Assembly (NCBI GenBank): GCA_029339505.1
Contig: JAQISU010000057.1
Span: forward strand, 8,329,501 to 8,393,500
Reading direction: 5' to 3'
From: Unio delphinus
Taxonomy: Eukaryota; Mollusca; Bivalvia; Unionida; Unionidae
Length of the DNA stretch: 64,000 nucleotides
Below are positions 3,663 to 18,435 of the stretch, piece after piece. Within the stretch, counting starts at the first letter, position 1; every line of letters begins with the position of its first letter. A program made the translations under genes and the position numbers. The notes under the pieces were generated by a model. It was not told where the DNA came from and searched no databases. It worked only from the letters and a program-made list of their open reading frames with translations.

Positions 3663-3700
3663 CAGACTTGGGGACGAAAATCACTACGACGAAAATCCTC

Positions 3701-5071: not shown

Positions 5072-5522
5072 GTTGTACTTCTAATTTTGACATCGCAGAA
5101 TCATATATATCTACCATCGTTGAAAACTCACTCTCTGATATAATTGTATCATCGAGAGATGACGATATCAATGAGGATAATTGCGAGTATGCAGTGGACA
5201 CAACATGAAATTGAATTATGTAGTCTTGTAGTTTCCGTTGGCTGCATGAGGATATTTTTTTTGTGATTATTGAAATTATTCCAGCGATTGTTGTTGCCGC
5301 AGAAATGCAAATTGGAACAGCTATCGGGGCCATCATTGTCACTGAAGACAGTATAATACCAGCTCCGGTGATTACACCACTCACAGCGTACACAGTAACA
5401 TCAATTGCGGTAATTCTCCTGCGATATTTTTTAATTTTCAATTCATACTCCTCAGACAGGGTTTTGAGTCTAGTTTGATACTCTCTGACCTGATCATAGC
5501 GATATTGCGATGATGAAATCAT
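4878..5522 (-). CDS. Polinton-associated protein with a double hydrophobic segment
   Basis: A 214-residue protein. Residues ~1-40 are charged and helical (KIKKYRRRI). Residues ~43-90 form a long hydrophobic hairpin-like stretch with Ala/Gly/Ile/Val and a short turn around MMAPIAVP. Residues ~95-150 are helical again and contain a DDTIISESEF segment. The last ~65 residues are Asn/Ser/Thr-rich and look disordered. The arrangement (KKYRRR, D-V-T-V, hydrophobic pair, lysine pair, then an S-E-F motif) resembles an uncharacterised family that recurs beside capsid genes of animal Polintons. Function is unknown; a membrane-associated virion protein is an inference. The disordered tail is encoded by DNA that also encodes the start of the next gene. 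A TTTTCAATTGT box lies 23-33 nt upstream of the ATG. Confidence 0.7.
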   Translation of the reverse strand: MISSSQYRYDQVREYQTRLKTLSEEYELKIKKYRRRITAIDVTVYAVSGVITGAGIILSSVTMMAPIAVPICISAATTIAGIISIITKKISSCSQRKLQDYIIQFHVVSTAYSQLSSLISSSLDDTIISESEFSTMVDIYDSAMSKLEVQHEYNNNDNTDGITSTNSGEHKSSTNKHDLNNLNESRIQCEFPLSGPSEGDSASKITSIPQLAKY

Positions 5523-5544
5523 TTTTTATTTTAACAACGCTAGC

Positions 5545-5555
5545 GTTTTCAATTG
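5545..5555 (-). promoter_or_regulatory. Shared upstream box (TTTTCAATTGT on the plus strand)
   Basis: One of three copies inside the element, each about 20-32 nt upstream of a minus-strand virion gene start (here ATG at 5522). It is preceded by the palindrome AACGCTAGCGTT. A role as late promoter or initiator is inference. Confidence 0.45.
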
Positions 5556-5572
5556 TGAAATCCTTTCAATTT

Positions 5573-6493
5573 TCAACTTAAATCCGCTACGAATTCCACA
5601 TACCACGTTGTTGAAACCATAAACAAAGTTTTATCAGTAGTTGTTATAGTGAACTTTTCAGTTGTACCCTTGTCGATGATCGTTGAAATCGTATTGACCC
5701 CGGATGAACTGGACGATGAAATCTTAAATTGAGTTAATGGTGTTACTAGTGTTAATCGATAAATACCCTTAACGGTTGCAGTGATATCTAATGTGTTGCT
5801 TTCAAGTGTCCACGCAAATGTTCCGTGTTGGATTGTGTATACTAAGTTGTTGGTTTTCTCATGAGGAATTTTTGTTTTTTCAATGACTGTTATCATCCTC
5901 GTTGCATCCCCTTTGATGTCTTCGATGAAAGTTTTCGTCTCATCGATGGATTTTTTAATATCAGGGAGTTTTAGTTCAATTTTATCTAACGGGGTTCCAA
6001 TAAATTTATCAATGGCGTCGGTTGTTGTTTTTGTTGCTTCGTTGATAACCTTTTGATCATCAACAAACGTTTTAATTTCAGCGATAGATGGTGTAACTAC
6101 AATTGGGGATCCAAAGAACTTATGAACGACATTTCTACGGAAACTATTGTAGTTTCTTAAATGATCTTCAAATTCCTTATCGTGGTTTGTAAATCGATCT
6201 GTAATCGTCGAAAAAAGTACACCCGGTTTGAGTTTACCCTGATCGGAAAATAGCGCAACAGTGTTCTCGATTGCGTTTTGTTGTTTAACCAAAATATCAT
6301 CCAGAGAAATATTACTGGATTTCAATTTACCCTGGCGATCTTGAAATACAACTATTTCATTCGGGTCAACACTTGTTAAGTTCAACGTCTCAGCGATTTC
6401 ATCTTTAATTTTTTTTTGTATATCCTTGATAGAATCAGAGGTTGCAGTGTCATCGGGTTTGGGTTTCAGAGGTCTCCCCCAAATATCAATCAT
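5573..6493 (-). CDS. Fibre/spike-like structural protein
   Basis: A 306-residue protein that starts MIDIWGRPLKP, an opening I associate with Polinton fibre-like proteins. Residues ~20-215 are rich in Lys, Asp, Glu, Ile and Thr with long amphipathic helical stretches, consistent with a trimeric coiled-coil or shaft region. Residues ~220-306 turn β-rich (Thr/Ser/Val/Ile, with a run of six serines), consistent with a small C-terminal head. No signal peptide or transmembrane helix is visible. The gene lies between the membrane protein and the protease, with 6 nt to the protease stop and 50 nt to the next gene. A receptor-binding or tail-fibre role is inferred from architecture only; no enzyme motif is present. 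Confidence 0.55.
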   Translation of the reverse strand: MIDIWGRPLKPKPDDTATSDSIKDIQKKIKDEIAETLNLTSVDPNEIVVFQDRQGKLKSSNISLDDILVKQQNAIENTVALFSDQGKLKPGVLFSTITDRFTNHDKEFEDHLRNYNSFRRNVVHKFFGSPIVVTPSIAEIKTFVDDQKVINEATKTTTDAIDKFIGTPLDKIELKLPDIKKSIDETKTFIEDIKGDATRMITVIEKTKIPHEKTNNLVYTIQHGTFAWTLESNTLDITATVKGIYRLTLVTPLTQFKISSSSSSGVNTISTIIDKGTTEKFTITTTDKTLFMVSTTWYVEFVADLS

Positions 6494-6499
6494 GATATT

Positions 6500-6937
6500 T
6501 TATATATCTCTCTCTAAAAAGCGATTACTAGTGTAGTCATTTACGACAATGTGTGGTGGTTTTCCCCTTGGGTTACCCAAGGAGTTAGAAATAGCGTCAA
6601 GGACATTTAATACTTCACTGCCGCATATTGGTGGGTCATTGATTTGTTGTGTTGGTAGCGTAGAATACCAAGTCTTCATTGGAAGGGTTTTTATATAACG
6701 CATAAACTCTTTTGGTGGGGCTAATCCATATGAATCAAAATAGACAATCCCACGTGGATCAATAGCGTATGCAACCCAGTGAGTTCCAGGTCCGGTGCTG
6801 TTATCGAGATTAATAATACCTGTTTCAGTTTTGTTTGGTTGATGTGGTAATTGATCTTTCATAAAAACACCTCTGAAATTTTTAATCACTAGTTGTTTAG
6901 CCGCATCCATTAAATCAAAATTGGACATTGGAACCAT
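6500..6937 (-). CDS. Adenain-like cysteine protease (virion maturation protease)
   Basis: Maturation protease of the adenovirus/Ulp1 cysteine protease clan, expected to process capsid and core proteins. With the ATG at 6937 the protein has 145 residues. The catalytic set is visible in the right order: His53 in GTHWVAY, Asp68 in YFDSYG, Gln98 in QQIND and Cys105 in PPICGSE. The spacing is close to adenain. The family N-terminus (FDLMDAAKQL then FRGVFMKDQLP) begins just after this start. An upstream ATG at 7009 would add 24 residues but overlap the PX-like gene by 61 nt, so I prefer 6937 (or 6928), which starts 12 nt after that gene's stop. Candidate cleavage sites occur in neighbouring proteins. 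Confidence 0.92.
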   Translation of the reverse strand: MVPMSNFDLMDAAKQLVIKNFRGVFMKDQLPHQPNKTETGIINLDNSTGPGTHWVAYAIDPRGIVYFDSYGLAPPKEFMRYIKTLPMKTWYSTLPTQQINDPPICGSEVLNVLDAISNSLGNPRGKPPHIVVNDYTSNRFLERDI

Positions 6938-6948
6938 AGATTTCTGAA

Positions 6949-7443
6949 TTAATAAACCGTTCCTGGTAGTCTCAGGCCTGATCCGTGAACGGATCTCCCG
7001 CTGTACCATGAATACGGGGTTCCTGGTAGTCTTAGACCCAATCCTTGAACGGATCGTCTCTTTTTTTTATATCCTTGTCCAGTTGCCTTTTTCAACGCCA
7101 TTCCTGCAGCAGTACCAACGGCTCCTAACGCCGCTGCTTTAGCCACCGCTGGGGCTGCTGCTGCAATCAATGCTGGTAACGCAGCAAACAATGGAAATAT
7201 ACCACCCGTTTTCATCATATTTTTAATAGCAGCCGCAGAGAGAGTAATCTGAACTCCCTTTTTATCCTTGAAAGCATCATTGAAATGTTTCACTTGACGA
7301 GTTGTCAGCGATAATTTATTTTCACCACCAGTCATTTGATTAGGTTTCAACGTGATTGTGGTTCCACATTTTTTAGCCGATTCTGATTGCAATTTTTTGA
7401 TTTGACCAGGAGTTAACGTAACACTAATAACACTATATGACAT
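6949..7443 (-). CDS. PX-like virion core/minor capsid protein
   Basis: A 164-residue protein. Residues ~5-75 contain two or three copies of a strand pattern ending in L-T-x-x-Q (LTPGQIKKL, LTTRQVKHF, LSAAAIKNM). They are followed by GGIFPLF and an Ala/Val-rich hydrophobic stretch (~85-115) that ends in a basic KKKRR patch. This is the architecture I recall for the PX-type protein of adintoviruses and Polintons, compared with adenovirus core protein pX. Residues 37-41 (MTGG-E) match the type I adenain cleavage consensus. The C-terminus has a duplicated GLRLPGT motif with arginine before each copy. The basic patch suggests DNA contact and the hydrophobic part suggests membrane or capsid contact; both are inference. 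Confidence 0.7.
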   Translation of the reverse strand: MSYSVISVTLTPGQIKKLQSESAKKCGTTITLKPNQMTGGENKLSLTTRQVKHFNDAFKDKKGVQITLSAAAIKNMMKTGGIFPLFAALPALIAAAAPAVAKAAALGAVGTAAGMALKKATGQGYKKKRRSVQGLGLRLPGTPYSWYSGRSVHGSGLRLPGTVY

Positions 7444-7482
7444 TATATATAATTGATTGATTCTAATTCAATGAAAAATCAT

Positions 7483-8892
7483 TCAAAGATTTTCTACTGG
7501 GGCATCTACCACTCTCATTCGTCCACCAACACCTTCAAGTAGCATTGATTTATCACTGAGAATGACAGCAACCGCTCTATAATCAGCAATAGCACCAGCA
7601 CCAGCAACAGGACGATTCACATTAGCTCTAAAGTGTATATCAACAACTGACTGTCTTGTCAAATCGAGATGTTCCAGTGAGAAGTAATAGATCGGATACA
7701 GATTTTTAAAATCAAATTGTGATATTTGCAAACCAGTATCGACATTTTGATCGCGTGCCATAAATGACAACAGACGATGATAAACTCGTGCAATATGATT
7801 TTCTGTGTAATTAAGTTGTATATCCTCAGATGGTTCCTGCTGGCCGTTTATTCTCAGTGAGACGTCTTTCACACCTAATTGATCAAATATCATATGACTG
7901 GAGAGTTGATTGCCAACTCGTGTGTTATCTTGGAACGCAATAAATATATGACGTGGCGCAGAAACGCCTTGTTTTGATGCTAGGTTCCAAGTGAATAACC
8001 CGTTGATAGTTGATTGTTTAACATCTGTACTCACGGTTAGCCAACTCAACAACGACTTTCCTCCTTGGTCCATAAATGATAGTAATCGTTGTTCTGCGGT
8101 GATTGCTGGAGTCAACACTGGCATCCACAATGATATTTTTGTTAATTTGACTTTACCGGCATCAGCATTGGGATTTGCAGCATCTGCTGGAATCCTCCAA
8201 ATTGCGTCGTTATCATCACCCTTTCGTACAAGCGATACTGTATGCTTCGCCCCGTAGATAACTTTTCTGACGTTTCTACAGAATCCAAATATGTGATGCA
8301 GTGGAATCGCGCATGAAAATGATTTACGATCTCCTTGCAACATTGCGTTTCGTGTTGCAGCTCCTAGATTGAAATTAGTATCGTTGTTTATAATCATATT
8401 CTCGACATCAGAATCACTATTATCACGTTTTTTTGGTCGTCTTATAATAAATGGATTTCCACCAGCGGTATTCTTACCATCTTTTGCAAACATCATAGAG
8501 GGTCCTGCTGATCTTGTATAATCATCAGAATATCTCGCTAACCCGATGATTGTTGTAGCCACATCAACATCACGATCTATGGACTCAATTTCTTTTCCAT
8601 CAATGAGATATCTAGCACTCTCAAATAGCGCCATAATACCATTATTGACAAAACCGACTTGAGTACCAACTGGATACTCTGTATCATTTGTTCGTATAAT
8701 CTCTCCTTCTACTTCAATAAATGCTTCACAGGGCAAAAAGTATTTACTGGTATCATGGACTTGAAGATCAATTCTTGCTCGACTATTTGAGTCTATGGCA
8801 TGATAGGCGTAATATTGATAATCGCGTACAGAATCATCCTTACCAACTGGGGCGTCTATATCAAATGCTGGATCAGATGATTTTTTGAACAT
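7483..8892 (-). CDS. Major capsid protein (double jelly-roll, hexon-like)
   Basis: Main shell protein, 469 residues, without gaps or stops. The N-terminal jelly roll shows the Polinton/adintovirus pattern: an aromatic-rich entry (YQYYAYHAID), a FLPCEAFIEVEG strand, then GFVNNGIMALFESARYLIDG followed by the acidic IESIDRDVDVAT. A second β-rich half follows, with a C-terminal stretch IYYFSLEHLDLTR and the strand VVDIHFRANVN. It is shorter than the ~600-residue hexons of some Polintons but in range for compact double-jelly-roll capsids. It sits at the centre of the virion module, 54 nt after the pVI-like gene and 39 nt before the PX-like gene. No adenain site is evident within it. The fold is inferred from pattern resemblance and context. 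Confidence 0.85.
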   Translation of the reverse strand: MFKKSSDPAFDIDAPVGKDDSVRDYQYYAYHAIDSNSRARIDLQVHDTSKYFLPCEAFIEVEGEIIRTNDTEYPVGTQVGFVNNGIMALFESARYLIDGKEIESIDRDVDVATTIIGLARYSDDYTRSAGPSMMFAKDGKNTAGGNPFIIRRPKKRDNSDSDVENMIINNDTNFNLGAATRNAMLQGDRKSFSCAIPLHHIFGFCRNVRKVIYGAKHTVSLVRKGDDNDAIWRIPADAANPNADAGKVKLTKISLWMPVLTPAITAEQRLLSFMDQGGKSLLSWLTVSTDVKQSTINGLFTWNLASKQGVSAPRHIFIAFQDNTRVGNQLSSHMIFDQLGVKDVSLRINGQQEPSEDIQLNYTENHIARVYHRLLSFMARDQNVDTGLQISQFDFKNLYPIYYFSLEHLDLTRQSVVDIHFRANVNRPVAGAGAIADYRAVAVILSDKSMLLEGVGGRMRVVDAPVENL

Positions 8893-8946
8893 TTTATTCT
8901 ATTTATCAGAGTCTAAATAGTGAAATCGTAAACGATTTTTCCATTT

Positions 8947-9378
8947 TCATCGACGTAGTTTTTTAAGACCACTCCCCGCTATCATGTTTGCAATATTGCT
9001 TTGGTCCCCTTGATTTACCATCGACGCTAGTTTTTCATCTACTGCGTTATTTATTATTTTACTAACACTTGCAGGCATTTCTTCTGTAGACGGTAACGGT
9101 TTCTTTTTTCGACTCACTAATGATGTTATTTTATCCTTCGCAGTTGAAAACGCTTTCCCGGCAAGATTTCCAACAGTACTAATACCCTTATCACGAATAA
9201 CATCAATGGCTTTCATTGATAACTGTTTAGCTAACGGCATCACTTTTGGGGCCATTCTTGAAAAGAATCCTAAAATGGTATTGCCGAGGCCATCTCCGTA
9301 GTATGCTCTATAAACTGGAAACCGTGAATTAACTACATAGACTGGGGTTGGTTTATCATGATTGTAATGGATGATCAT
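8947..9378 (-). CDS. pVI-like amphipathic minor capsid protein
   Basis: A 143-residue basic protein. Residues ~28-60 contain GDGLGNTILGFFSRMAP followed by an amphipathic helix, an arrangement like the membrane-active N-terminus of adenovirus protein VI and its Polinton counterparts. The middle is helical and lysine-rich (SRKKKPLP). The C-terminus ends with IAGSGLKKLRR, in which I-A-G-S-G fits the type II adenain consensus, so release of a short basic peptide is plausible. The gene lies directly upstream of the major capsid gene, which fits a capsid-interior partner. A TTTTCAATTGT box is 20-30 nt upstream of the ATG. Membrane-lytic function is inference. Confidence 0.6.
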   Translation of the reverse strand: MIIHYNHDKPTPVYVVNSRFPVYRAYYGDGLGNTILGFFSRMAPKVMPLAKQLSMKAIDVIRDKGISTVGNLAGKAFSTAKDKITSLVSRKKKPLPSTEEMPASVSKIINNAVDEKLASMVNQGDQSNIANMIAGSGLKKLRR

Positions 9379-9397
9379 TATTATAAAAACAATAGTG

Positions 9398-9408
9398 TTT
9401 TCAATTGT
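9398..9408 (-). promoter_or_regulatory. Shared upstream box (TTTTCAATTGT on the plus strand)
   Basis: Second copy of the element's box, 20-30 nt upstream of the ATG at 9378. It overlaps the intergenic gap between two minus-strand virion genes. Confidence 0.5.
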
Positions 9409-9411
9409 TAT

Positions 9412-10389
9412 TTAATCGCTATGATACCCATTTGCTAACTCGTCAATGAAATCTCGATAGGTTTTGATATCCATGATACCGCCGGCAAATAACCGTCTAC
9501 AGATATCAGCTGCTTCATTAATTATTTCTGGAGAGTTATTTCCAGCTCGTTTTCCTCCGATGAGAACATCTAATCGTGATATATCATTGATAACACTATC
9601 AGGACAAATGTTTCCAATCCTTGGATTTCCTAATCCACTTCCGCTATAACCAGCTGCTTCATCTAGTTTTTCTAAATCCGTAGTTTGTAAATAATCATCA
9701 TCATCATCATCATCAGGTGGTAGTTGTTGTTTTTTTTGTCTTCTTGTTTGTCTACGTGTTGGTGTTTGACGTTTTAGTTCTTGCCGTTCTTCTATTTCTC
9801 GTTGTCGCTCTTCTATTTGTTCTCTTTTATAATAACTAATTCCCTTTTTAAATTCCTTGTATCCTATCTCATCCTTATTCAAACGACCAATCCCTTTATT
9901 TAGTTTATACAAATTATCAAACCAATCATTACTTGATATTCTATCATTCTTATACTCGTCCTTTAAAAAATCTTTTTTTGAATTATAGCTTTGAGCAGCA
10001 AAATTACCAAAGGCTTGATAATCCTTTGATTTCAATAAACTAGGTTTTTTTATTAATATTTTAGCATGATCAGTAAATTTATTCAACAGAGAAACAGTCG
10101 TTTTTTTCGGATCAGTTTTTTCAGTTTGTTCAGTTTTCGCTGCTAGTTTTTCAAGCTCACCAATAACAGATTTCCCCGTCTCGGGACCATCTCCCAGTAA
10201 AGCACGCTCTACCCCTTTCGTTGCTGTGGTTACTGGTTTAAACAACTCTTCAGACCCCAGAGCAAAATCAGTTTGTAAACCCTGTCGTTGTTGCAGTTTA
10301 TTTCTTACAGAGTCACGAATTGGTACAAATCTCCTGATTGCATCCAGTCGTTCACGAGCCAATCGGGTTGTTAATGCTTCATTGACCAT
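9412..10389 (-). CDS. Conserved Polinton structural/scaffold-like protein
   Basis: A 325-residue hydrophilic protein from the ATG at 10389. An ATG at 10473 would add 28 residues, but these lie in a 130-bp tandem repeat and beyond the TTTTCAATTGT box at 10410..10420, so I prefer the shorter form. Residues ~1-35 are a basic amphipathic helix (LARERLDAIRRF). The middle is charged, with an Arg/Glu/Gln coiled-coil-like stretch, then a run of eight aspartates, then YSGSGLGN. The C-terminal ~60 residues form the best-conserved part (LIGGKRAGNNSPEIINE...IMDIKTYRDF), a pattern I associate with animal Polintons. L-I-G-G-K fits the type I adenain consensus. Enzyme function is not evident; scaffolding or core packing is a guess. 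Confidence 0.65.
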   Translation of the reverse strand: MVNEALTTRLARERLDAIRRFVPIRDSVRNKLQQRQGLQTDFALGSEELFKPVTTATKGVERALLGDGPETGKSVIGELEKLAAKTEQTEKTDPKKTTVSLLNKFTDHAKILIKKPSLLKSKDYQAFGNFAAQSYNSKKDFLKDEYKNDRISSNDWFDNLYKLNKGIGRLNKDEIGYKEFKKGISYYKREQIEERQREIEERQELKRQTPTRRQTRRQKKQQLPPDDDDDDDYLQTTDLEKLDEAAGYSGSGLGNPRIGNICPDSVINDISRLDVLIGGKRAGNNSPEIINEAADICRRLFAGGIMDIKTYRDFIDELANGYHSD

Positions 10390-10409
10390 TATTTGAAATC
10401 GCAAACTAT

Positions 10410-10420
10410 TTTTCAATTGT
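10410..10420 (-). promoter_or_regulatory. Shared upstream box (TTTTCAATTGT on the plus strand)
   Basis: Third copy, 21-31 nt upstream of the ATG at 10389. The constant spacing helps decide the start of the 325-residue protein. Confidence 0.5.
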
Positions 10421-10427
10421 AAAACAC

Positions 10428-10690
10428 TTTCTCCACTTTTTTGACATGTCAGATGATTTTTTAACGCAGTCATGGAAGAGTTATTTCATCCTATAACAGC
10501 TTCTATCAATGATGGGGAAAGTCACATAATTGTATATAAAATAAATAATACTGACAGTTTCCTCACTTTTGTTACATGTCGGATGATTTTTTATATGGTC
10601 ATGGAAGTGTTATTTCATCGTGAGACACCTTCTATCAGTGATGTTGAAAGTATCAAAATTGTATATAAATAAAATAATACTGATAGTTTC
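10428..10690. repeat. 130-bp tandem duplication upstream of a virion gene
   Basis: Two diverged copies, 10428-10557 and 10558-10690, share ACATGTC, GGATGATTTTTTA, TCATGGAAG, GTTATTTCATC, CTTCTATCA and ATTGTATATAAA in the same order with a 130-bp period. The short open frame on the plus strand here is a by-product. The copies lie between the accessory and virion modules and may hold regulatory sites. Confidence 0.8.
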
Positions 10691-10803
10691 AACATTCTAG
10701 TTTTGACCAATCTGACACATCGTCCATCGATTTTGACACCCTTTGAGGGTCGGCTAAAAAAAATGATATGGTCGGGTAATCAAAAAATGATATGGTCGGG
10801 CAA
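10691..10803. other. Short intergenic spacer with a 24-bp direct repeat
   Basis: Contains AAAATGATATGGTCGGGTAATC followed at once by a second copy ending GGGCAATC (about 10758-10806). No coding signal is visible. It sits just after the stop of the minus-strand 133-residue frame, so a 3'-end or transcription boundary role is possible. Confidence 0.4.
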
Positions 10804-11205
10804 TCAAAACTGTTCATTTTCTTGAATTAATGCTCGTAGGTTTCTAATTTTAGAGTTGACTTCTTTTTTCAATTCGTATTCGTTACCTAATTCTTTTCGT
10901 ATTCCCTCTACGATAGTATACAACGGAACGAACACACTGATGTCACTGGAAAATGAAAGAGAGTCTTTAATAGAATTCTGAATTTTTTTGATGAGTGCAT
11001 ATTTCTTGGGTAGCATATATTTATTGTTGTTAACCCCGTATTCTATATCCTGAAAATCAGACACAATTTGGTCAGGATTTAATCCATCTGATAGTTTGAT
11101 ATCCTGATTTTTCAATTTTGCTATTTCAACTATGATGCTATTCATGTTTTCAGAATTCATTATTCTATAAGTATGACATATCTCTAATTGGAAATTATGA
11201 CGCAT
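10804..11205 (-). CDS. Hypothetical protein of the accessory module
   Basis: A 133-residue frame I do not recognise. It is hydrophilic and mainly helical in character: a Lys/Glu/Asn-rich N-terminus, a PKKYALIKKIQNSIKDSL stretch, a more hydrophobic FVPLYTIVEGI segment and a charged C-terminal helix. No Cys/His cluster, signal peptide or membrane helix is visible. The first ATG overlaps the stop of the upstream HNH gene by one base on the coding strand (TAATG). An internal ATG at residue 16 (11160) is a reasonable alternative. Its place between the endonuclease and the virion module suggests a small regulatory or accessory protein, without direct evidence. Confidence 0.5.
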   Translation of the reverse strand: MRHNFQLEICHTYRIMNSENMNSIIVEIAKLKNQDIKLSDGLNPDQIVSDFQDIEYGVNNNKYMLPKKYALIKKIQNSIKDSLSFSSDISVFVPLYTIVEGIRKELGNEYELKKEVNSKIRNLRALIQENEQF

Positions 11206-11711
11206 TAGACATAACTAAATTGAACTTTTTGTCCCGTCTTTTTTGAAATAGCCGATCGATAAATCCCCTCTGCAACGAATCGTACAGAAGTCGGACAGAT
11301 ATTGAAATATTTTCCGGCTTCATTCATAGATGAAAATATTTTTTCTTCATTAGTTATTGTATTCAAAGATGTCACAGGTCTCTTCCCAACCGTTTTGCAA
11401 GTGCCAGTCTTTCCTTGTTTGGAATTCTCACTCAGTGTGATAGCCTGCAGATTGGATACAGAATTATTCTTTGGATTAGAATCCTTGTGATAAATAACAA
11501 AACCATCTTTGATCAATCCATTAAAACATTCAAATACGAAACGATGAATGAGATAATTTTTCGTTTCTTTTCCTCCGCCAACAGTAAACCTCAAATACCC
11601 TTGATTAGTCACAAAACCAACTGATTTTTTCAGTCTACGGTTTCTGACAGTACCATCACTGGATGCTTCATATTTTGTAATCACTGGATGTGGTCTGAAT
11701 TCTTGGTCCAT
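11205..11711 (-). CDS. NUMOD/HNH homing-type endonuclease
   Basis: A 168-residue predicted DNA endonuclease of the NUMOD4-HNH-NUMOD1 type known from phages, giant viruses and mobile introns. Residues ~8-45 fit the NUMOD4 pattern (YEASSDGTVRNRR). Residues ~55-93 fit the HNH core: IHRFVFECFNG, then YHKDSNPKNNSVSNLQAIT with the His-x-Asp and Asn-Asn-x-x-x-Asn-Leu elements. Residues ~115-150 resemble a NUMOD1 helix-turn-helix (FSSMNEAGKYFNI). It lies 10 nt after the Cys-rich gene and abuts the next frame. Such enzymes usually nick or cut specific sites and spread as passengers. Whether it serves the element (for example end processing) or is a free rider cannot be told. The frame is intact. Confidence 0.8.
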   Translation of the reverse strand: MDQEFRPHPVITKYEASSDGTVRNRRLKKSVGFVTNQGYLRFTVGGGKETKNYLIHRFVFECFNGLIKDGFVIYHKDSNPKNNSVSNLQAITLSENSKQGKTGTCKTVGKRPVTSLNTITNEEKIFSSMNEAGKYFNICPTSVRFVAEGIYRSAISKKTGQKVQFSYV

Positions 11712-11721
11712 ATATACTATT

Positions 11722-12117
11722 CTATTGTTTGTCTAATTCAGTGTTTGGTTCAATAATTACATCACTGGAAAATCTTTCGATATAGTCTTGCGGGGTTCTT
11801 ATGATTTTATCCTTGATTTTGTCAGGGTCAAGGGCCTTTTCAGGGTCATAATTTCTGATAGATTGTCCATTTTTTATTCTTTTATCATAATAACGCTTCA
11901 ATTCCCTATATCGCTTACCACCACAATCACTACACAATTGTGATCTTCCCTTAACCCCAACCCCACATCGAATACAGGGTAACGGACCAAGACTTCCACG
12001 TCGAAAACTTTGCATATGATACCTACAGTACTCATTTTTTCTGCATGATTTGTTACACGGGGTTACATTTCCCATCATGAGCCATTTGCAGTGATTCATT
12101 ATACATAAAACTTTCAT
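11722..12117 (-). CDS. Cys-rich zinc-binding protein
   Basis: A 131-residue protein. Its N-terminal half carries a dense Cys/His set: HCKW, then PCNKSC, EYCRYH, PCIRCG and LCSDCG, enough for at least two zinc sites. The first part (C-x-G-x-x-x-x-C...C-R-Y-H) resembles a small Cys-His finger found in large DNA viruses and Polintons. The second (CIRCGVGVKGRSQLCSDCG) is a treble-clef or ribbon-like knuckle. The C-terminal half is charged and contains no motif I know. The start could be the ATG at 12117 or, seven codons later, at 12099. It is transcribed divergently from the polymerase gene, with only 24 bp between the first ATGs, so a shared promoter is likely. Nucleic-acid binding is inference. 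Confidence 0.65.
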   Translation of the reverse strand: MKVLCIMNHCKWLMMGNVTPCNKSCRKNEYCRYHMQSFRRGSLGPLPCIRCGVGVKGRSQLCSDCGGKRYRELKRYYDKRIKNGQSIRNYDPEKALDPDKIKDKIIRTPQDYIERFSSDVIIEPNTELDKQ

Positions 12118-12141
12118 TTAAATGTTTGTTTTGTATATAGC
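12118..12141. promoter_or_regulatory. Compact bidirectional promoter region
   Basis: Only 24 bp separate the ATGs of the minus-strand Cys-rich gene and the plus-strand polymerase gene. The gap is AT-rich and includes TTGTATATAG, a TATA-like sequence about 10 nt before the polymerase ATG. It may act as an initiator for both sides. Confidence 0.35.
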
Positions 12142-15100
12142 ATGAAGGAGTTCAAGAGATTGACTTCGACAAATGCTAAATTCAATGCTGATAGAGAGTT
12201 CAAGAGATTATTGAAAATCAATCCTAGATTTAATCTCGATAGACCAAATAAACGTCAAAAACGTCCAAGAGACGGAAACATGAAAGAATTCAAGAGATTA
12301 TTGAAAATCAATCCTAGATTTAATCTCGATCGACCAAAAAAACGTCCAATAGACGGAAACAAACGTAACAAACGTCCAAGAGACGGAAACATGAAAGAGT
12401 TTAAGAGATTATTGAAAATCAATCCTAAATTTAATATCGATAGACCCAAAAAGCGTAACAAACGCACAATAGACGGAAACATGAAAGAGTTTAAGAGATT
12501 ATTAAAAATCAATCCTAGATTTAATCGCGATAGACCCAAAAAACGTAACAAACGTCCAAGAGACGGAAACATGAGATCATCATGGAAGGATGCTCAATTC
12601 AATCTTGATATAGTTTCTAATACACCCAAGAATAAAATTCTTGATAAACCCATCAGAGACTGTTTTAATGAATTCAAGCGTGATGGAGCATCTTATTGTT
12701 GGTCAACATTTCGAATTGATGGTGTTGTTGACGCTACCATGAATGATGAAAAGGCAGCAGCGATCATTTCACGTGTTGGGGAAAAAAGTCATTTTTTCCG
12801 AATCAAATTCGTTATCCGTGAGAATGGCAAATGGATTATTAAGGATAAATTTGAACCCATTCTCAAGGGCAAAAAAACTATCACCGTGAATCAGGATTCC
12901 AAACCGGGAATTTTGACCGGAATTGATAAACCCTACTACGAAAGATCTTATCCTGTCACAGCAGTTGTTTACGGGATCTATCCGCTCAATGAAAAACCTG
13001 ATATTTCAAAACTAGCACCCATGAAATATTCGACAGGGCTCAATTGTGTAGCAGAACGAATAATAGAACACTTCACAAATGCATCCCGGGGGAATAAACT
13101 AACTGATCTAAGACGAAAAAAAATAACCGAGTGGGAATTAACGGTAAAAGAGCATGGAGCAACAATTCAGGATATAGCCAAATTAGAAACATCATTGAGA
13201 TTTCCAATATCGGTAAGAACAATCACCGGTGAAGTATTATACGAATCGAAATATCAATCAAAAGGAACCCCCATTGAAATTATTGATCATAACGCGCACG
13301 CGTGGTCATCTGCAGTAACAATATTTCCACGGGATAGAACCGTAAAATATCTATCCCCAGCAGGGTTGGGACCTGAAGAATGTTTTACCGAGCAGAAATT
13401 ATTTGATGCTATTTACCATTTGAGTAAAAACGATCCTGTGTCAGCGTGGCTATTTCATAGTAATTCAGACGAAGAATGCAGATTTGATCAGTTTGTAAGG
13501 CCCAACGGAGAATTGTACCGTACTGAAGAACTGCAGAATCAAATGAAACAACTAGCTAGTGAGTTTTCTGAGGACGGAGAAGAAGACGATCAATTATTAG
13601 CAAACTGTTTTACAGTAACATCCATTGCAGCACATTTTGCTAGAAAGAAAAACGCGTGGAAACCAACACGAAGTGAGTTTTTATCAGATGTCAAATTGTC
13701 CTGTCTTGAATACAGCCACGGCGGATTATGGAACACAAAATACACCTCTGATTCCGTTATTTCAGTTGATATGATTGCGTGTTATCCAGGAAGTTTTCTT
13801 GGGTATGGAGAATGCGAGAAATATTTCAAACGATTTGGACACCCTACACACGAAATGACCCGTGTTGCTATTAATGGACCACTTCCTGATTTTGATTTAA
13901 CCGGATTCGCTTGTGTGGTATCATTTGAAATGGCTGAAGGACTTCATCCGTGTAGTTATCTTTGGATTGGTAAACACATGTCTGAAAAACACTGGATGCC
14001 AATAGTGTTGTTACGGTATATGCTTGATTGTAAAATGTTAAAATCATTAATTGTCAGTGAAGCAATTATATCCTATCGGGCACAGAAATCAGTCTGGTTA
14101 CCACAACCTGATCTAGAAAAAATAATTAGCGAAGAGCGAAAACTGTTTCCTGATTTTAATGAACAACAAATCATGGATTGGTCCAGACAGTTATTTGAAA
14201 TCAGAAACAATGAAGCAAAAAATCTTGGACGAAGAATAATCGGTAAATTTACCCAAGGTGGCAAAGATGATAATACGAAATATTCTTCACGATTGATTAT
14301 AGACAACGCTGAATACGATTTTGTAATGGCGGATTTAACGAATAAGGGCTTATATGTCAATCGTAAGGACGCATTTATGTCCGATGGAACCAAATTGGGT
14401 ACAATTGTTACCTACAATGATGGATACCATCCGCAGTACACACACTTAAGAGCTTCTATGCTCGGTTATGCTTCTATCAATCTGTTTTCAATGATCAATA
14501 GATTTCCTACCACCGCAGTTAGAGTTGCTACTGACTCATTTTACATAAATAGCAAAATGGCTGATTTTAAGGCTACTGTCAACGAGAAATGGGGATCATG
14601 GAGAATTAAGAAAGAAATGATTCATGATTATATTCAATCAGCAGATGTTACCATTGAAAATAATTACTTAGAAAGCAATCAGTGTTCAGAATTTTCTAGT
14701 GCACCACCGATTTCTGATCCAATATGCCTGTATAAAACAGTTTATTTAAACGGTTGTGGCGGGTCAGGAAAAACAACCCGGGTAATTGAGTTATTCCGTC
14801 GTGGAAACGCTAGCGTTTCTAACATGATTGTGCTAACACCAACTCATAGACTTGCAAGAGAAATGATACAGAGAGGGGTAAATGCTTGCACTTATCACAG
14901 CTTTTTCCGATGGAAGGGAGATAAATGGACTCCTGAGCGCATGGGAGAGAAATTTATTCCTGAAATAATCATTTGGGATGAAATAGACACAGTGTCAGAA
15001 GATGTCTTAAAAATATTTCTTGAGTGGTTGTTATTGAAGAATACAAAAATCGTTATGTGCGGTGATCACGGCCAACCTCCACCATTTGTCGGTGCATCTC

Positions 15101-16017
15101 CCCATGAATGGCTAAAGGGTTTTGTAGACTATTATGAAGAAATTGATACTGATCATAGATCACTTGATAATGAATTAAAAGAATTGAAGAAACTAATTAG
15201 ATTGCAACCGGATAGAATCCAGTGTGAAATAACCCGTGAAATAATTTCGGAAACTCCCATGAATGAGTTTTGGGAAGCGTGGAGACCAAACGATTTAATC
15301 ATTGCAAGTAGAAAAATAGTCAGGGACACACTTCAGATGAAGTTATTTGAATTGCATAAACAAAAATTTGCAACACTTCCAGTGCCTCTTTGTTATAGGC
15401 CATCGGATACGCGAAAACAGAACATCGAAGTTGATATTCCAGGACAAAGTGAAAAACAGAATTTAGTATTAAATGATATTGTGCTGGTTGATATCAATGT
15501 TGTTGAAGATGCATTGCGTGCTAATAAATCCCCGTGGACGCTAGGTTATGCAGCAACAATACACTCTTCACAGGGATTGACTATATCGGATACAACTCTT
15601 TGGATGGTAGATAATCGCATAGAATGGTCGAATTTAGTCTATCTCGCAGTGTCTAGAGTACGAAAAATAAATCAACTTCGAAGAATTGTCGTTGGCGAAG
15701 CCAGTGGAGATGATGAAATCATTGGTGATGATAATGACACCACAATAGATGATATTATTGATAAAAAACTCTCCGGTTACAAACAACAGGACAAAAAAAA
15801 ACAACGAGAATTTGATATTGATGCTGAATTAATAATCACTTTGAAGAAACAACAGAATAATCACTGCGCGAGTTGCAATTGTATAATGCGTTGGCAGTAT
15901 TCGGATAAGGATCCTCGCCAATTCACCGTGGACAGAAAAAATAACAATCTCGGTCATGTCAGAAATAATGTGATGTTGACTTGTCTTGAGTGCAATAGAC
16001 GCAAGGGTGCTAGTTAA
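12142..16017 (+). CDS. DNA polymerase B-SF1 helicase-HNH fusion protein
   Basis: Replication protein of 1291 residues that joins three enzyme modules. Residues 1-145 are tandem basic repeats (EFKRLLKINPRFN...). Residues ~390-820 hold a divergent family B polymerase: motif A with Asp543 in SVDMIACYPGSF, a motif B-like IIGKFTQGG (699-707), THLRASMLGYASINL, and motif C as RVATDSFYI with Asp798. The first Asp of the usual DTDS is Ala here. Residues ~865-1180 form an SF1 helicase: Walker A GCGGSGKT (871-878), TPTHRLA, Walker B IIIWDEID with Asp946-Glu947, GDHGQPPP and motif V-like ATIHSSQGLTI. Residues ~1240-1290 form a Cys-rich HNH nuclease (CASC, FTVDR, GHVRNN, CLECN). I cannot place a 3'-5' exonuclease. 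It is the only plus-strand gene in the centre and its stop overlaps the convergent integrase stop by 8 nt. I recall the same fusion in invertebrate and arbuscular-fungal genomes. Confidence 0.9.
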   Translation: MKEFKRLTSTNAKFNADREFKRLLKINPRFNLDRPNKRQKRPRDGNMKEFKRLLKINPRFNLDRPKKRPIDGNKRNKRPRDGNMKEFKRLLKINPKFNIDRPKKRNKRTIDGNMKEFKRLLKINPRFNRDRPKKRNKRPRDGNMRSSWKDAQFNLDIVSNTPKNKILDKPIRDCFNEFKRDGASYCWSTFRIDGVVDATMNDEKAAAIISRVGEKSHFFRIKFVIRENGKWIIKDKFEPILKGKKTITVNQDSKPGILTGIDKPYYERSYPVTAVVYGIYPLNEKPDISKLAPMKYSTGLNCVAERIIEHFTNASRGNKLTDLRRKKITEWELTVKEHGATIQDIAKLETSLRFPISVRTITGEVLYESKYQSKGTPIEIIDHNAHAWSSAVTIFPRDRTVKYLSPAGLGPEECFTEQKLFDAIYHLSKNDPVSAWLFHSNSDEECRFDQFVRPNGELYRTEELQNQMKQLASEFSEDGEEDDQLLANCFTVTSIAAHFARKKNAWKPTRSEFLSDVKLSCLEYSHGGLWNTKYTSDSVISVDMIACYPGSFLGYGECEKYFKRFGHPTHEMTRVAINGPLPDFDLTGFACVVSFEMAEGLHPCSYLWIGKHMSEKHWMPIVLLRYMLDCKMLKSLIVSEAIISYRAQKSVWLPQPDLEKIISEERKLFPDFNEQQIMDWSRQLFEIRNNEAKNLGRRIIGKFTQGGKDDNTKYSSRLIIDNAEYDFVMADLTNKGLYVNRKDAFMSDGTKLGTIVTYNDGYHPQYTHLRASMLGYASINLFSMINRFPTTAVRVATDSFYINSKMADFKATVNEKWGSWRIKKEMIHDYIQSADVTIENNYLESNQCSEFSSAPPISDPICLYKTVYLNGCGGSGKTTRVIELFRRGNASVSNMIVLTPTHRLAREMIQRGVNACTYHSFFRWKGDKWTPERMGEKFIPEIIIWDEIDTVSEDVLKIFLEWLLLKNTKIVMCGDHGQPPPFVGASPHEWLKGFVDYYEEIDTDHRSLDNELKELKKLIRLQPDRIQCEITREIISETPMNEFWEAWRPNDLIIASRKIVRDTLQMKLFELHKQKFATLPVPLCYRPSDTRKQNIEVDIPGQSEKQNLVLNDIVLVDINVVEDALRANKSPWTLGYAATIHSSQGLTISDTTLWMVDNRIEWSNLVYLAVSRVRKINQLRRIVVGEASGDDEIIGDDNDTTIDDIIDKKLSGYKQQDKKKQREFDIDAELIITLKKQQNNHCASCNCIMRWQYSDKDPRQFTVDRKNNNLGHVRNNVMLTCLECNRRKGAS
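12199..12570 (+). repeat. In-frame tandem repeats encoding a basic N-terminus
   Basis: Four close copies of a 90-111 nt unit encoding EFKRLLKINPRFNLDRP followed by Lys/Arg-rich KKRNKRPRDGN, preceded by one degenerate copy (12142-12195). The units differ in length by multiples of three, so the frame is kept. Confidence 0.9.
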
Positions 16018-16954
16018 GCCCATGGGGTGGCAATTGAGTATCCTCGGGTATCACTTGTAATTGTTGTCTAGTAAAACCCCGTTGAGGGGCAGTTGAATCC
16101 AGTTTATAGATTGGAGGTCTACCCGTAGATCGTGTTATACTAGATATCTTATGCGTAGTGACGCTCCAAATAGGATCAGTAGCCCTTTTTGTACCACCCT
16201 CAAGCTCTCCTGGTTCGTATAAGTACCTCACAATGACATTACTACCAAGAATTGGTTCTTTGAAATCTTTTTGTGGTTTTTCAGGTATCGACTTCTTTTT
16301 AATCGCGTTGATAGGTTTCATGTTGATGGTTCTAGTAATCTCGTTATTCAGTGCGGTAACTACACCTGGTAATCTCTTAACCCATTCACGGGATCTTTTT
16401 TCTTGGATGAATTCTTTTGCATATTGATATCCAAATAACCGCTCAGCAAGGGTTTTATTAAACCGTTCTACAATGGCCTGATCACGATGCAGTGCAGTAT
16501 GCCCTCGTCTGATAGCGACATTGTGATATTTCATTGTAGATAACACTGCACCCTGAAATTCCTTGCCCGGGTCAACTTGTAACAGATTTGGCCAGTGCAA
16601 AGGACCTCGTCGATAAATTCTTTCAAATGCAGAAGCGACTTCAGTGGCCGATTTTGTTTTTAACGGTTCTGCTTCTTTGTATCGACTTGCAATATCAACT
16701 ACAGTTAACGCATATTTGTAACCACGATCATGTGGCAGAAATAATAGATCAGCCTGATGAACTTCATTGGGTCCGGTTACATCAAAATGCGAGAATTGAA
16801 TTTGTTTAGGCGGTGGTAGATAAATTTGCCATAGTGCCTGTTTGGATAACCAATGAGCCGCAGTGGTTTTTTTCACTTTTGCGGCGCTAGCGAGTTTACT
16901 GATTGCAGCGTTACCCCTCCAGTATCCTCTTGGGGAATAATAAATAGATTCCAT
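16010..16954 (-). CDS. Retroviral-type DDE integrase (Polinton INT)
   Basis: Integrase expected to insert the linear element into host DNA. The start I prefer is the ATG at 16954, giving 314 residues; the frame stays open upstream but only to a GTG. The N-terminal helical part (KVKKTTAAHWLSKQALWQIYLPPPK) matches the Polinton type rather than a clear HHCC zinc finger. The catalytic core has Asp69 (HQADLLFL), Asp128 (LLQVDPGKEF) and Glu163 (QAIVERFNK), with 34 residues between the last two by my count. The C-terminal ~80 residues (ATDPIWSVTTHKI...YKLDSTAPQRGFTRQQL) form an SH3/chromo-like tail seen in Polinton integrases. The ATG is 7 nt after the stop of the phospholipase-like frame. The frame is intact. 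A 5-bp target duplication fits integrase chemistry. Confidence 0.93.
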   Translation of the reverse strand: MESIYYSPRGYWRGNAAISKLASAAKVKKTTAAHWLSKQALWQIYLPPPKQIQFSHFDVTGPNEVHQADLLFLPHDRGYKYALTVVDIASRYKEAEPLKTKSATEVASAFERIYRRGPLHWPNLLQVDPGKEFQGAVLSTMKYHNVAIRRGHTALHRDQAIVERFNKTLAERLFGYQYAKEFIQEKRSREWVKRLPGVVTALNNEITRTINMKPINAIKKKSIPEKPQKDFKEPILGSNVIVRYLYEPGELEGGTKRATDPIWSVTTHKISSITRSTGRPPIYKLDSTAPQRGFTRQQLQVIPEDTQLPPHGLN

Positions 16955-16961
16955 GTTGCTA

Positions 16962-17321
16962 TTAATTACCAGCACCTAACATCAATTTACTTTTCATAGC
17001 CGATTTTATCAAAAATGAAGCCAATTTTTCTTTGAAGGATTGATCAGTGATAGAATTCAACGCATGAATTAATTTCACATCTGCTAGATGCCTGTGTTGC
17101 AAATTGCTGCTTTTATAAGCAACATCATGAAGGTGACAGGCCTTATCAATAGCGTTTATTGGTTCCTCACCGGGTCGGGGCTGATTTTGATCATTGAGTC
17201 TGATATCAAGTCTTGTTCCCGGTCCACAATAACTATACCCTGGAAGGTGTTTTTCTCCGGGGTATTTTGCCCATGGGGTTCCAGGGAGTTTTGCTAATTT
17301 GGCAGCGATATCACCTCCTCG
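16962..17321 (-). CDS. Phospholipase A2-like domain (parvovirus VP1 type), no own start codon
   Basis: A 119-codon frame on the minus strand with a parvovirus-type phospholipase A2 signature: the Ca-loop GYSYCGPGT (Gly33, Gly35), an Asn/Pro-rich linker, then INAIDKACHLHDVAY with the His65-Asp66 catalytic pair. In parvoviruses this domain helps the particle escape endosomes; a similar role here is inference. The frame has no ATG before the active site; the only Met codons are in the last 11 residues. Upstream it stays open only to a TAA near 17355. It lies in the -1 frame of the zinc-ribbon gene and begins right after the slippery heptamer A AAA AAC (17327..17321, minus strand). The simplest reading is expression as a zinc-ribbon-PLA2 product by -1 ribosomal frameshifting. 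Splicing or non-AUG initiation are alternatives. Confidence 0.75.
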   Translation of the reverse strand, partial: RGGDIAAKLAKLPGTPWAKYPGEKHLPGYSYCGPGTRLDIRLNDQNQPRPGEEPINAIDKACHLHDVAYKSSNLQHRHLADVKLIHALNSITDQSFKEKLASFLIKSAMKSKLMLGAGN

Positions 17322-17491
17322 TTTTTTTTTAAAGGTTCCTTGGGTTCCTTGGGTTTAGAAACAAATCTAAATTTCTTTGTACTACACTGTACGCATTTAC
17401 CAGAAAGCGCTGATCGGTTATTTTTAGTTGTAATCGTCGTCAAGTCATCTGTACCAGTACGCGCCTTACACTTCACGCAATATAGATCCAT
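17294..17491 (-). CDS. DUF5679-like zinc ribbon protein
   Basis: A 65-residue protein. Residues 3-43 (LYCVKCKARTG...SALSGKCVQCSTKKFRF) match the DUF5679 pattern, a two-CxxC zinc ribbon common in large DNA viruses and Polintons: Cys5 and Cys8, then Cys33 and Cys36. The last ~20 residues are Lys/Pro/Glu-rich (KPKEPKEP) and look like a linker. Codons 55-57 on a run of nine A residues form A AAA AAC, a canonical -1 slippery sequence. In the 0 frame the protein ends eight codons later; in the -1 frame the phospholipase-like domain follows. Its ATG is 5 bp from the divergent ATPase ATG. Single-strand nucleic-acid or protein binding is a guess. Confidence 0.8.
   Translation of the reverse strand: MDLYCVKCKARTGTDDLTTITTKNNRSALSGKCVQCSTKKFRFVSKPKEPKEPLKKNEEVISLPN
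17321..17327 (-). promoter_or_regulatory. Candidate -1 ribosomal frameshift site A AAA AAC
   Basis: On the minus strand the zinc-ribbon reading frame reads AAA AAC here, preceded by A, inside a run of nine A. A slip of one base back enters the frame of the phospholipase-like domain with no intervening stop. I did not find a convincing downstream stem-loop or pseudoknot by eye. Confidence 0.6.
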
Positions 17492-17496
17492 AATTT
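17492..17496. promoter_or_regulatory. 5-bp gap between divergent start codons
   Basis: The ATGs of the zinc-ribbon gene (minus, 17491) and ATPase (plus, 17497) are separated by AATTT only. Transcription starts must therefore lie inside the opposite gene's coding region, or one or both genes use a downstream ATG (17509 for the ATPase). Confidence 0.4.
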
Positions 17497-18168
17497 ATGT
17501 ATAGAGATATGAATATAATTGATTTTTCAGCGACTAAAACAAGAGAACCAGTGAAGCATCATGCAGCGCTACCAAACTCTATCCGCGCAATTATAATCGG
17601 GCCATCTGGATCCGGTAAAACGCAATTGTTGCTCAATTTAATAATGAGATGGATGAAGTGGGATAAGTTGTATTTAATTGCCCCTAGCGTAGACGACCAA
17701 CGATGCTATGAAGTGCTAAAAGATTTTAATGAAAACGCTTCAGAGATTGCCGGCGAGGATGTTATTGAATTTATAACCGATATTGACGAGGCGCCATCCG
17801 TGAATGACCTCGATGGAAGTATCAACAATTTAGTTGTATACGACGATGTCATGTTAGATAAACAAAAAAATCCTGCTAGAATATTTTCCCGAGGCAGGCA
17901 TAAAAACACAGATGTGATTTATGTCACTCAACGATACACTCAGATTCCAAAAGTGATTAGAGATAACTGTAATATGCTTGCTGTATTCAACGGCGTTGAT
18001 ACACATACGCTACGAAATATTTGGCAGACATGGTGTTCTGATATGGACTTCAATCAATTTAGAAATTTCTTTAGTCATGCTCAGTCTGCCCCCCACGGAT
18101 TTGTAACAATAAATTTACATGACCCTCGAACACGATATCGTATCGGACTGGATCAAATATTCGGTTAA
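17497..18168 (+). CDS. A32/FtsK-HerA-type DNA packaging ATPase
   Basis: Genome-packaging ATPase of the FtsK/HerA superfamily, the A32-like type shared by Polintons, virophages and nucleocytoplasmic large DNA viruses. It is 223 residues from the first ATG; an ATG at 17509 (residue 5) is equally plausible. Walker A is GPSGSGKT (residues 35-42). Walker B is LVVYDDVM (112-119, Asp116-Asp117). The downstream VTQRYTQIPKVIRDNCN (~143-159) is the sensor/arginine-containing motif of this family. The C-terminal region (FFSHAQSAPHGFVTINL) is also typical. The gene is divergent from the zinc-ribbon gene with 5 bp between the ATGs. Its last ~13 codons lie inside the right inverted repeat, so the left repeat holds a matching gene-end fragment that is not expressed as such. 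Confidence 0.92.
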   Translation: MYRDMNIIDFSATKTREPVKHHAALPNSIRAIIIGPSGSGKTQLLLNLIMRWMKWDKLYLIAPSVDDQRCYEVLKDFNENASEIAGEDVIEFITDIDEAPSVNDLDGSINNLVVYDDVMLDKQKNPARIFSRGRHKNTDVIYVTQRYTQIPKVIRDNCNMLAVFNGVDTHTLRNIWQTWCSDMDFNQFRNFFSHAQSAPHGFVTINLHDPRTRYRIGLDQIFG

Positions 18169-18430
18169 CCCATAGCAGCAGAGAGGGTGAGTGACAACGA
18201 TGTTGTAGTCCCTTTTCCCAAAAAATGTAATAGTTGAAAAGTTTTTGATTTCATTAATTTCATTGATTTTTTCATATTTTTTTTTTTGGACCTAATCCAT
18301 GAAACACACACATATTTGGGACCTGATGTCATTGACTTTTGGGTCTGATGTCATTGGTTTCATTGATTTTAAGCGTGATTTCAGTGAATACTTGTCTAAA
18401 AATGTTGTCCGATACACCCTCTCTGCTGCT
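18128..18430 (-). repeat. Right terminal inverted repeat, 303 bp
   Basis: Reverse complement of the left repeat with three differences. Its inner end encodes the last ~13 codons and stop of the packaging ATPase (stop at 18166..18168). Internal 16-bp inverted ends lie at 18174..18189 and 18415..18430. Confidence 0.95.
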
Positions 18431-18435
18431 TAATA
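18431..18435. other. Right 5-bp target-site duplication TAATA
   Basis: Directly follows CTGCTGCT and matches 3355..3359. Confidence 0.75.

What the first reader, a model, noticed from the sequence alone, without database searches (positions are those of the whole stretch)
16962..17491. Phospholipase A2-like domain reachable only by -1 frameshift from a zinc-ribbon gene
The minus-strand frame 17321..16962 has the YCGPG calcium loop and the His-Asp catalytic pair of the parvovirus VP1 type, yet no ATG before the active site. It is in the -1 frame of the DUF5679-like gene and begins at a canonical A AAA AAC heptamer. A zinc ribbon joined to a membrane-active enzyme by programmed frameshifting would give a low-abundance virion protein, analogous in logic to parvovirus VP1. 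I do not know of a described case in Polintons.
Basis: partly seen in the sequence, partly recalled or inferred. Interest (0 to 1): 0.88.

Follow-up and report, generated by a model that had tools for sequence, protein, structure and literature searches.

The report
Frameshift-split phospholipase gene in a Polinton
A virus-like mobile element (a Polinton) carries a phospholipase domain that no usable ATG start codon reaches and that lies one reading frame back from a small zinc-ribbon gene at a run of nine A's; many relatives show the same split, so the enzyme is likely made by slippage at that run, which would be a new way for such elements to ration a predicted cell-entry enzyme.

Summary
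A 65-codon zinc-ribbon gene (DUF5679, 17491..17294, minus) ends shortly after an A9 run with an in-phase A AAA AAC (17327..17321). A phospholipase A2-like frame (PF08398, 17354..16962) lies at -1, with no usable ATG. In many relatives the two domains form one protein. In the window's own subfamily the -1 split recurs: of 61 rows I assigned 30 (window included) to -1, 20 to one frame, 11 to +1 (partly by eye). On the poorly resolved zinc-ribbon tree the -1 state clusters (0 of 500 shuffles as low; 1 of 500 with automatic labels) and +1 does not; on the PLA2 tree -1 does not cluster. In 18 split copies the phospholipase frame is strongly conserved while the zinc-ribbon frame's tail drifts. The element looks otherwise whole: TIRs 98.7% alike, 17 other A-runs of 7 or more in open ORFs. 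I judge an inherited split expressed by slippage more likely than decay. But no split relative's DNA could be read, no clear downstream RNA structure was found, 3 of 30 -1 rows lack the slip site, and A-run length change is a real rival. PLA2 in Polintons is already known; the split was not found in the papers searched.

The parts
3360..18430 (.). Polinton-like element, about 15.1 kb, between TIRs
   Evidence: TIR arms 98.7% alike over 309 aligned columns, 2 mismatches and 2 gaps; TAATA on both sides (3355-3359, 18431-18435) read from the sequence printed; integrase, packaging ATPase and double jelly-roll capsid by Pfam
3360..3662 (+). left terminal inverted repeat
18128..18430 (-). right terminal inverted repeat
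17294..17491 (-). zinc-ribbon ORF (DUF5679, PF18930), 65 codons
17322..17330 (-). run of nine A's at which the frames part
17321..17327 (-). A AAA AAC heptamer in phase with the zinc-ribbon frame (candidate slip site)
16962..17354 (-). PLA2-like frame, open stop to stop, -1 relative to the zinc-ribbon frame, no usable ATG
17013..17252 (-). PF08398 Phospholipase A2-like domain
   Evidence: residues 24-103 of P0001
17217..17231 (-). YCGPG calcium loop
17124..17129 (-). His-Asp catalytic pair
16010..16954 (-). integrase (rve), first ATG 7 nt after the PLA2 stop; PLA2 and integrase are one ORF in locus L001
17497..18168 (+). packaging ATPase (Pox_A32-like), divergent neighbour

Best explanation
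The zinc-ribbon and phospholipase A2 frames correspond to two domains that many relatives carry as a single protein; in this element and many of its subfamily they are split by -1 at an A-run, and the split is likely an inherited, expressed state in which slippage at the run (predicted -1 ribosomal slip on A AAA AAC, or RNA polymerase slip on A9) would make a zinc-ribbon protein plus a minor zinc-ribbon-PLA2 protein. Shown: the split, its recurrence at the same junction in many diverged copies, and strong constraint on the PLA2 frame among split copies. Inferred: that the split state itself has been inherited, that slippage happens, which machine slips, that the product is minor, and that the enzyme helps virions cross a membrane at entry, as parvovirus VP1 does.
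For: One-frame relatives: 19 of the 75 hits and 67 of the 120 listed (of 378) carry both Pfam domains. Split relatives: tails of zinc-ribbon-only proteins fit PLA2 in the -1 frame (P0077 over 54 residues, score 19.8; P0079-P0086, 8.3-19.3; at most 3.3 for 10 shuffles each), and six PLA2-only proteins carry the zinc ribbon in the other frame upstream (4.7-5.9 against at most 3.0 for 20 shuffles each). On the zinc-ribbon tree of 61 rows the -1 label needs 12 changes against 20.6 shuffled (0 of 500 as low), +1 needs 10 against 10.4 (242 of 500); with automatic labels 10 against 17.0 (1 of 500), and with only the 25 well-scored -1 rows against in-frame rows 8 against 15.0 (0 of 500). Neighbour test on 53 of the 61 rows: -1 concordance 21.1 of 28 against 0.52 expected (25 of 2000). 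PLA2-frame constraint: 18 split copies, 153 pairs, 1786 differences in the zinc-ribbon frame but at least 192 in the PLA2 frame (null 865-945 in 40 simulations); 9 disjoint pairs, 55 against 8 (null mean 28, none of 1000 as low). The window's nearest rows are -1 on both trees (P0077, P0002). The element's other 14 listed ORFs are open and hold 17 other A-runs of 7 or more, two of them A9; an A11 run has the same length in both TIRs.
Against: +1-split and in-frame copies occur in the same subfamily (11 and 20 of 61 rows by my assignment), as A-run length change would give; P0098 (-1) and P0109 (+1 by eye) have identical zinc ribbons. On the PLA2 tree the seven -1 rows do not cluster (7 changes, 500 of 500 shuffles as low; starred branches force 2), and P0013 (-1) pairs with in-frame P0046 (97/77). 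In the neighbour test in-frame rows do not cluster (1.7 of 14). No clear downstream structure. P0095, P0096 and P0101 are -1 without an in-phase slip site. Relatives other than L001 are known only as predicted proteins, most from short unnamed contigs: no DNA. PLA2 constraint could predate recent independent breaks.
Confidence: 0.55

Rival explanations
1. Decay at a hot spot: the gene was one frame in the active element and the A-run, the most mutable spot of the gene, changed length after insertion, silencing PLA2. Recurrent identical breaks arise because most copies carry a run.
For: In-frame, -1 and +1 forms coexist (20, 30 and 11 of 61 rows by my assignment), a ratio that biased slippage could give; splits are scattered on the PLA2 tree; one pair with identical zinc ribbons differs in state; some copies change frame elsewhere (P0071, P0076, P0104); 3 of 30 -1 rows have lost the slip site; no clear RNA structure.
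Against: -1 clusters on the zinc-ribbon tree while +1 does not; -1 copies with long tails keep the PLA2 frame, though this could predate the breaks; the window's element has 17 other A-runs of 7 or more in open ORFs and no other evident break; the closest relative on each tree shares the -1 state.
Confidence: 0.3
2. PLA2 is made separately, from its own start: an ATG in the -1 frame inside the second CxxC of the zinc ribbon (leaky scanning), or a spliced leader.
For: Six relatives (P0002, P0004, P0011, P0013, P0017, P0022) have an open PLA2 frame that begins with Met within the zinc ribbon.
Against: In the window that frame has three stops after its ATG (17396) and no ATG between the last stop (17357) and the domain. 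Gene callers look for a start, so such Mets are selected for in a protein database (inference). Splicing was not testable here.
Confidence: 0.08
3. The run is tolerated at any length because polymerase slippage on it yields transcripts in all frames; the junction is a length-variable switch between a zinc-ribbon-only and a joined product.
For: All three frame states occur among relatives with a Lys/A-run at the junction; run lengths inferred by eye from peptides differ between copies.
Against: The +1 state does not cluster on the tree, as a viable state should; at least one -1 copy (P0087) allows a run of only about six A's by its peptide (by eye); no DNA or RNA data.
Confidence: 0.04
4. Sequencing or assembly error in the A9 run of the window.
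For: Homopolymers are error-prone; reads could not be seen.
Against: The same -1 split is seen in many separate database clusters; the other A-runs lie in open ORFs.
Confidence: 0.03

Closest known systems
PLA2 genes of Polintons/Mavericks (PMC4642659, one passage read; PMC5803895, passages read: Sf Maverick CAP with PLA2)
   Same: parvovirus-type PLA2 domain in a Polinton; entry role proposed in PMC4642659 by analogy
   Different: no split or frameshift is mentioned in the passages read; here the domain is -1 to a zinc-ribbon gene and has no usable ATG
Parvovirus VP1 unique-region PLA2
   Same: calcium loop and His-Asp pair; the A1 profile meets parvovirus (AAV-type) capsid chains in register, weakly (best E 0.083; single sequence about 0.6)
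   Different: VP1 places PLA2 at the N end of a capsid protein, and its low abundance comes from splicing and start choice (recalled), not from frameshifting
-1 ribosomal frameshifting on A AAA AAC (retroviral gag-pro type, recalled)
   Same: in-phase A AAA AAC at the junction of an upstream short and a downstream longer domain
   Different: no clear downstream structure found; no measured shift
Slippery sites proposed by KnotInFrame near the end of adintovirus Penton genes (PMC11071296, passages read)
   Same: -1 shift proposed to add a C-terminal domain in an animal virus of this broad group
   Different: different gene; the passages read give a prediction only
PLA2-integrase fusion in locus L001
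   Same: same PLA2 family beside the same kind of integrase
   Different: there PLA2 is joined downstream to integrase in one frame and no DUF5679 was matched

Membership tests
Polinton/Maverick elements | terminal inverted repeats and short target duplication | tested here: met
   98.7% over 309 columns; TAATA (5 bp) on both sides
Polinton/Maverick elements | retrovirus-type integrase | tested here: met
   PF00665 32.7 bits, cut-off 32.6
Polinton/Maverick elements | packaging ATPase and double jelly-roll capsid | tested here: met
   Pox_A32 45.2 bits; DJR-like 66.7 bits
Polinton/Maverick elements | adenovirus-type protease | tested here: inconclusive
   Peptidase_C5 17.9 bits, cut-off 21.3
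[quoted passage not shown]
   the 1291-aa ORF matched helicase and AAA models only; polymerase-like motifs seen by eye, recalled
Phospholipase A2-like (PF08398) | profile match above the curated cut-off | tested here: met
   47.6 against 23.9 bits
Phospholipase A2-like (PF08398) | calcium loop and His-Asp pair | tested here: met
   invariant or nearly so in 31 rows
Phospholipase A2-like (PF08398) | PLA2 fold | tested here: inconclusive
Phospholipase A2-like (PF08398) | lipase activity | not testable with these tools
   none
Programmed -1 ribosomal frameshifting | in-phase slippery heptamer at the junction | tested here: met
   A AAA AAC 17327..17321
Programmed -1 ribosomal frameshifting | stimulatory structure a few nt downstream | tested here: inconclusive
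   five stretches, z -0.36 to -1.36; pseudoknots not modelled
Programmed -1 ribosomal frameshifting | frame relation and slip site conserved in relatives | tested here: inconclusive
   -1 recurrent and clustered on the zinc-ribbon tree, not on the PLA2 tree; in-frame and +1 copies exist; 3 of 30 -1 rows lack the site
Programmed -1 ribosomal frameshifting | joined product made by slippage | not testable with these tools
   no expression data

The most novel reading that the evidence does not exclude
A whole subfamily of Polintons encodes its PLA2 entry enzyme only as a frameshift extension of a zinc-ribbon protein, a conserved slippage switch that sets how much membrane-active enzyme each virion gets: the first comparatively supported programmed frameshift in Polintons, and a different route to what parvoviruses do with VP1.
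Probability: 0.45. Interest if true: 0.8.

Novelty: new variant of a known kind. Interest (0 to 1): 0.6.

Why it matters
Whether Polintons still make infectious particles is an open question (recalled). If a predicted entry enzyme is kept under selection in a frameshifted state, that points to recent life as a virus and gives a concrete protein to look for. It would also be a test case of two virus groups limiting the same enzyme by different means, and it warns that gene prediction splits or drops this gene in frameshifted members.

Tried and rejected
Viral contigs: five scans gave no relative. Genome contigs: one scan gave one locus, L001. Phage records: none. The genome search on the window's own assembly did not complete, so other copies in the host and their DNA were not seen, and the host was not identified. 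The PLA2 tree does not resolve the split copies; I do not claim one origin. A first zinc-ribbon tree of 35 rows gave -1 8 changes against 10.8 (25 of 500). PDB by sequence gave only weak parvovirus capsid matches among others. Papers: no held paper has the term DUF5679; adintovirus with phospholipase A2 or PLA2: none; polinton+frameshift+phospholipase: 2; polinton+ribosomal frameshift: 2; polinton+zinc ribbon+PLA2: none; polinton+phospholipase A2: 7; maverick+PLA2+parvovirus: 3; adintovirus/polinton/maverick, two of three: 143, 20 listed, listing only. I read passages of PMC11071296, PMC5803895, PMC3671162 and PMC4642659; the other papers were seen as listings only. The last list (impossible residues) was one residue out of register and is replaced. 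One search failed and was rerun, where 13 of 60 proteins had too little upstream sequence to score. Of the 378 hits only the 120 listed were seen, and I read the sequences of 42 of the 83 new ones. Assignments: the automatic score (58 rows) gave 31 proteins plus the window as -1, 20 as in frame, 6 as +1, with weak scores on short tails. By eye I moved P0102, P0109, P0117 and P0156 from -1 to +1; dropped P0111, P0121 (scored -1) and P0106 (scored in frame) as unclear and P0114, P0143, P0161 (in frame) as another subfamily; and added P0087, P0089, P0097 and P0126 to -1, P0113 to +1, and P0010, P0014, P0019 and P0046 to in frame. P0124 was left out as unclear. Of the 30 -1 rows, 25 score 16 or more; of the 11 +1 rows only P0135 does. 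One search repeats the tree count with the automatic labels. The heptamer count (27 of 30) was judged by eye from peptides. The neighbour test used 53 of the 61 rows, leaving out P0095, P0105, P0005, P0007, P0010, P0012, P0014 and P0027.

Full report
What is there. The window holds a 15.1-kb Polinton-like element at 3360-18430, bounded by TIRs 98.7% alike over 309 aligned columns and by TAATA on both sides. Pfam identifies an integrase, a Pox_A32-type packaging ATPase and a double jelly-roll capsid protein; the protease match is below its cut-off, and the 1291-aa replication ORF matches helicase and AAA models only. Between ATPase and integrase, on the minus strand, lie the zinc-ribbon ORF 17491..17294 (DUF5679, E 1.3e-13) and the PLA2-like frame 17354..16962 (PF08398, E 2e-12). 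The PLA2 frame is -1 to the zinc-ribbon frame; the two part at an A9 run that contains A AAA AAC in phase. No ATG can start the PLA2 domain: the one at 17396 runs into three stops.

Relatives in one frame. A search with the PLA2 frame alone gave 75 proteins; 19 carry both Pfam domains in one protein. In the profile search 67 of the 120 listed hits (378 in all) do. By my sorting, 54 of the 56 listed hits outside the close subfamily carry both domains, so one-frame fusion looks like the usual state elsewhere; I read the sequences of only some of these.

Relatives that are split. A search with the zinc-ribbon ORF alone gave 14 short proteins. Most run past the Lys codons into the same kind of tail as the window's. 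Back-translating those tails into all possible codons shows that the -1 frame can encode PLA2: P0077 over 54 residues, score 19.8, and P0079-P0086 (8 proteins) at 8.3-19.3, against at most 3.3 in 10 shuffles each; the short tails of P0078 and P0087-P0090 score 1.8-3.8, near their controls; the +1 frame scores no better than its controls in any. Conversely, of the 60 hits that I had not set aside as fused references (some of them fused all the same; 13 too short upstream to score), six (P0002, P0004, P0011, P0013, P0017, P0022) carry the zinc ribbon upstream in the frame expected for a -1 split (4.7-5.9 against at most 3.0 in 20 shuffles); P0059 points weakly the other way (3.1 against 2.5), and P0021 breaks further upstream.

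Census. With the third search I assigned 61 zinc-ribbon rows, window included: 30 at -1, 20 in one frame (of which P0039, P0071, P0076 and P0104 look broken further down), 11 at +1. Part of this is by eye and short +1 tails give weak scores; the changes against the automatic one search are listed under Tried and rejected. On the 43-column zinc-ribbon tree the -1 label needs 12 changes (shuffled mean 20.6, 0 of 500 as low), the in-frame label 11 (17.1, 0 of 500), and the +1 label 10 (10.4, 242 of 500). With the automatic labels (52 of the 61 rows) -1 needs 10 (17.0, 1 of 500), in-frame 10 (14.0, 4 of 500), +1 5 (5.8, 86 of 500); with the 25 well-scored -1 rows against the in-frame rows, 8 (15.0, 0 of 500). 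The tree is poorly resolved and near-copies inflate such clustering. A neighbour test on 53 rows gives -1 concordance 21.1 of 28 (25 of 2000 shuffles), and 19.5 of 28 when neighbours must differ by at least 4 residues (75 of 2000), with no clustering for +1 or in-frame rows. P0098 (-1) and P0109 (+1 by eye) have identical zinc ribbons, so the state can change quickly. On the PLA2 tree of 35 rows the seven -1 rows do not cluster at all (7 changes, 500 of 500), and P0013 (-1) pairs with in-frame P0046 at 97/77. So -1 has arisen or been lost more than once, but near the window it may well be inherited: the nearest rows are P0077 and P0002, both -1.

Constraint. In 18 split copies with 36-codon tails, 153 pairs differ at 1786 positions in the zinc-ribbon frame but need at least 192 differences in the PLA2 frame; neutral simulation gives 865-945 (40 runs). 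The +1 frame shows 1158 against 796-884. Nine disjoint pairs give 55 against 8 (null mean 28, minimum 17 in 1000). At most 3 of 35 window PLA2 residues are impossible in any of the 18 copies. The PLA2 frame has thus been under selection for most of the divergence among these copies. This cannot by itself exclude that each copy split recently.

The window's own copy. The other 14 listed ORFs of the element (16 with zinc ribbon and PLA2, 14.2 kb in all) show no evident break and hold 17 other A-runs of seven or more, two of them A9; several of these ORFs have no known relative, so a truncation there could be missed. An A11 run is equally long in both TIRs. A lesion only at this run is possible but would be something of a coincidence if it were decay.

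Mechanism. I favour slippage at the run: -1 on A AAA AAC by the ribosome, or by polymerase on A9. RNA folding downstream is unremarkable (z -0.36 to -1.36), so an efficient classical signal is not shown, and low-level slippage is more in line with the sequence. By eye, 27 of 30 -1 rows can carry the in-phase heptamer; P0095, P0096 and P0101 cannot. The entry role is inferred from parvoviruses and was proposed for Polinton lipases by others (PMC4642659, passage read).

Noticed in passing
L001:912-2120 (+): PLA2 and integrase are one 402-aa ORF (PF08398 and PF00665) on a 7.2-kb contig binned with a bacterial MAG (Muriicola), probably a stray Polinton-like contig. In the window the integrase ATG lies 7 nt after the PLA2 stop.
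   Followed up: partly
window 12142-16017 (+): A 1291-aa ORF with helicase matches (AAA_19, AAA_30); by eye a polymerase-like first half and an HNH-like C end, perhaps like the HelPol type named in PMC11071296. No polymerase model matched in Pfam.
   Followed up: partly
window 12195-12636: The start of that ORF holds a repeat of about 90 nt coding for a basic unit.
   Followed up: no
window 11205-11711 (-): HNH_3 endonuclease with a weak NUMOD1 match, perhaps of the homing type, inside the element.
   Followed up: no
window 6949-7443, 8947-9378, 9412-10473 (-): Several small proteins carry GG or GxG stretches that resemble adenovirus protease sites (motif recalled); in many relatives DUF5679 and PLA2 are joined by a GGD.
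   Followed up: no
relatives P0071, P0076, P0054, P0104: Copies that change frame at other places (by eye), some falling back into the zinc-ribbon frame downstream; signs of real decay in part of the family.
   Followed up: partly
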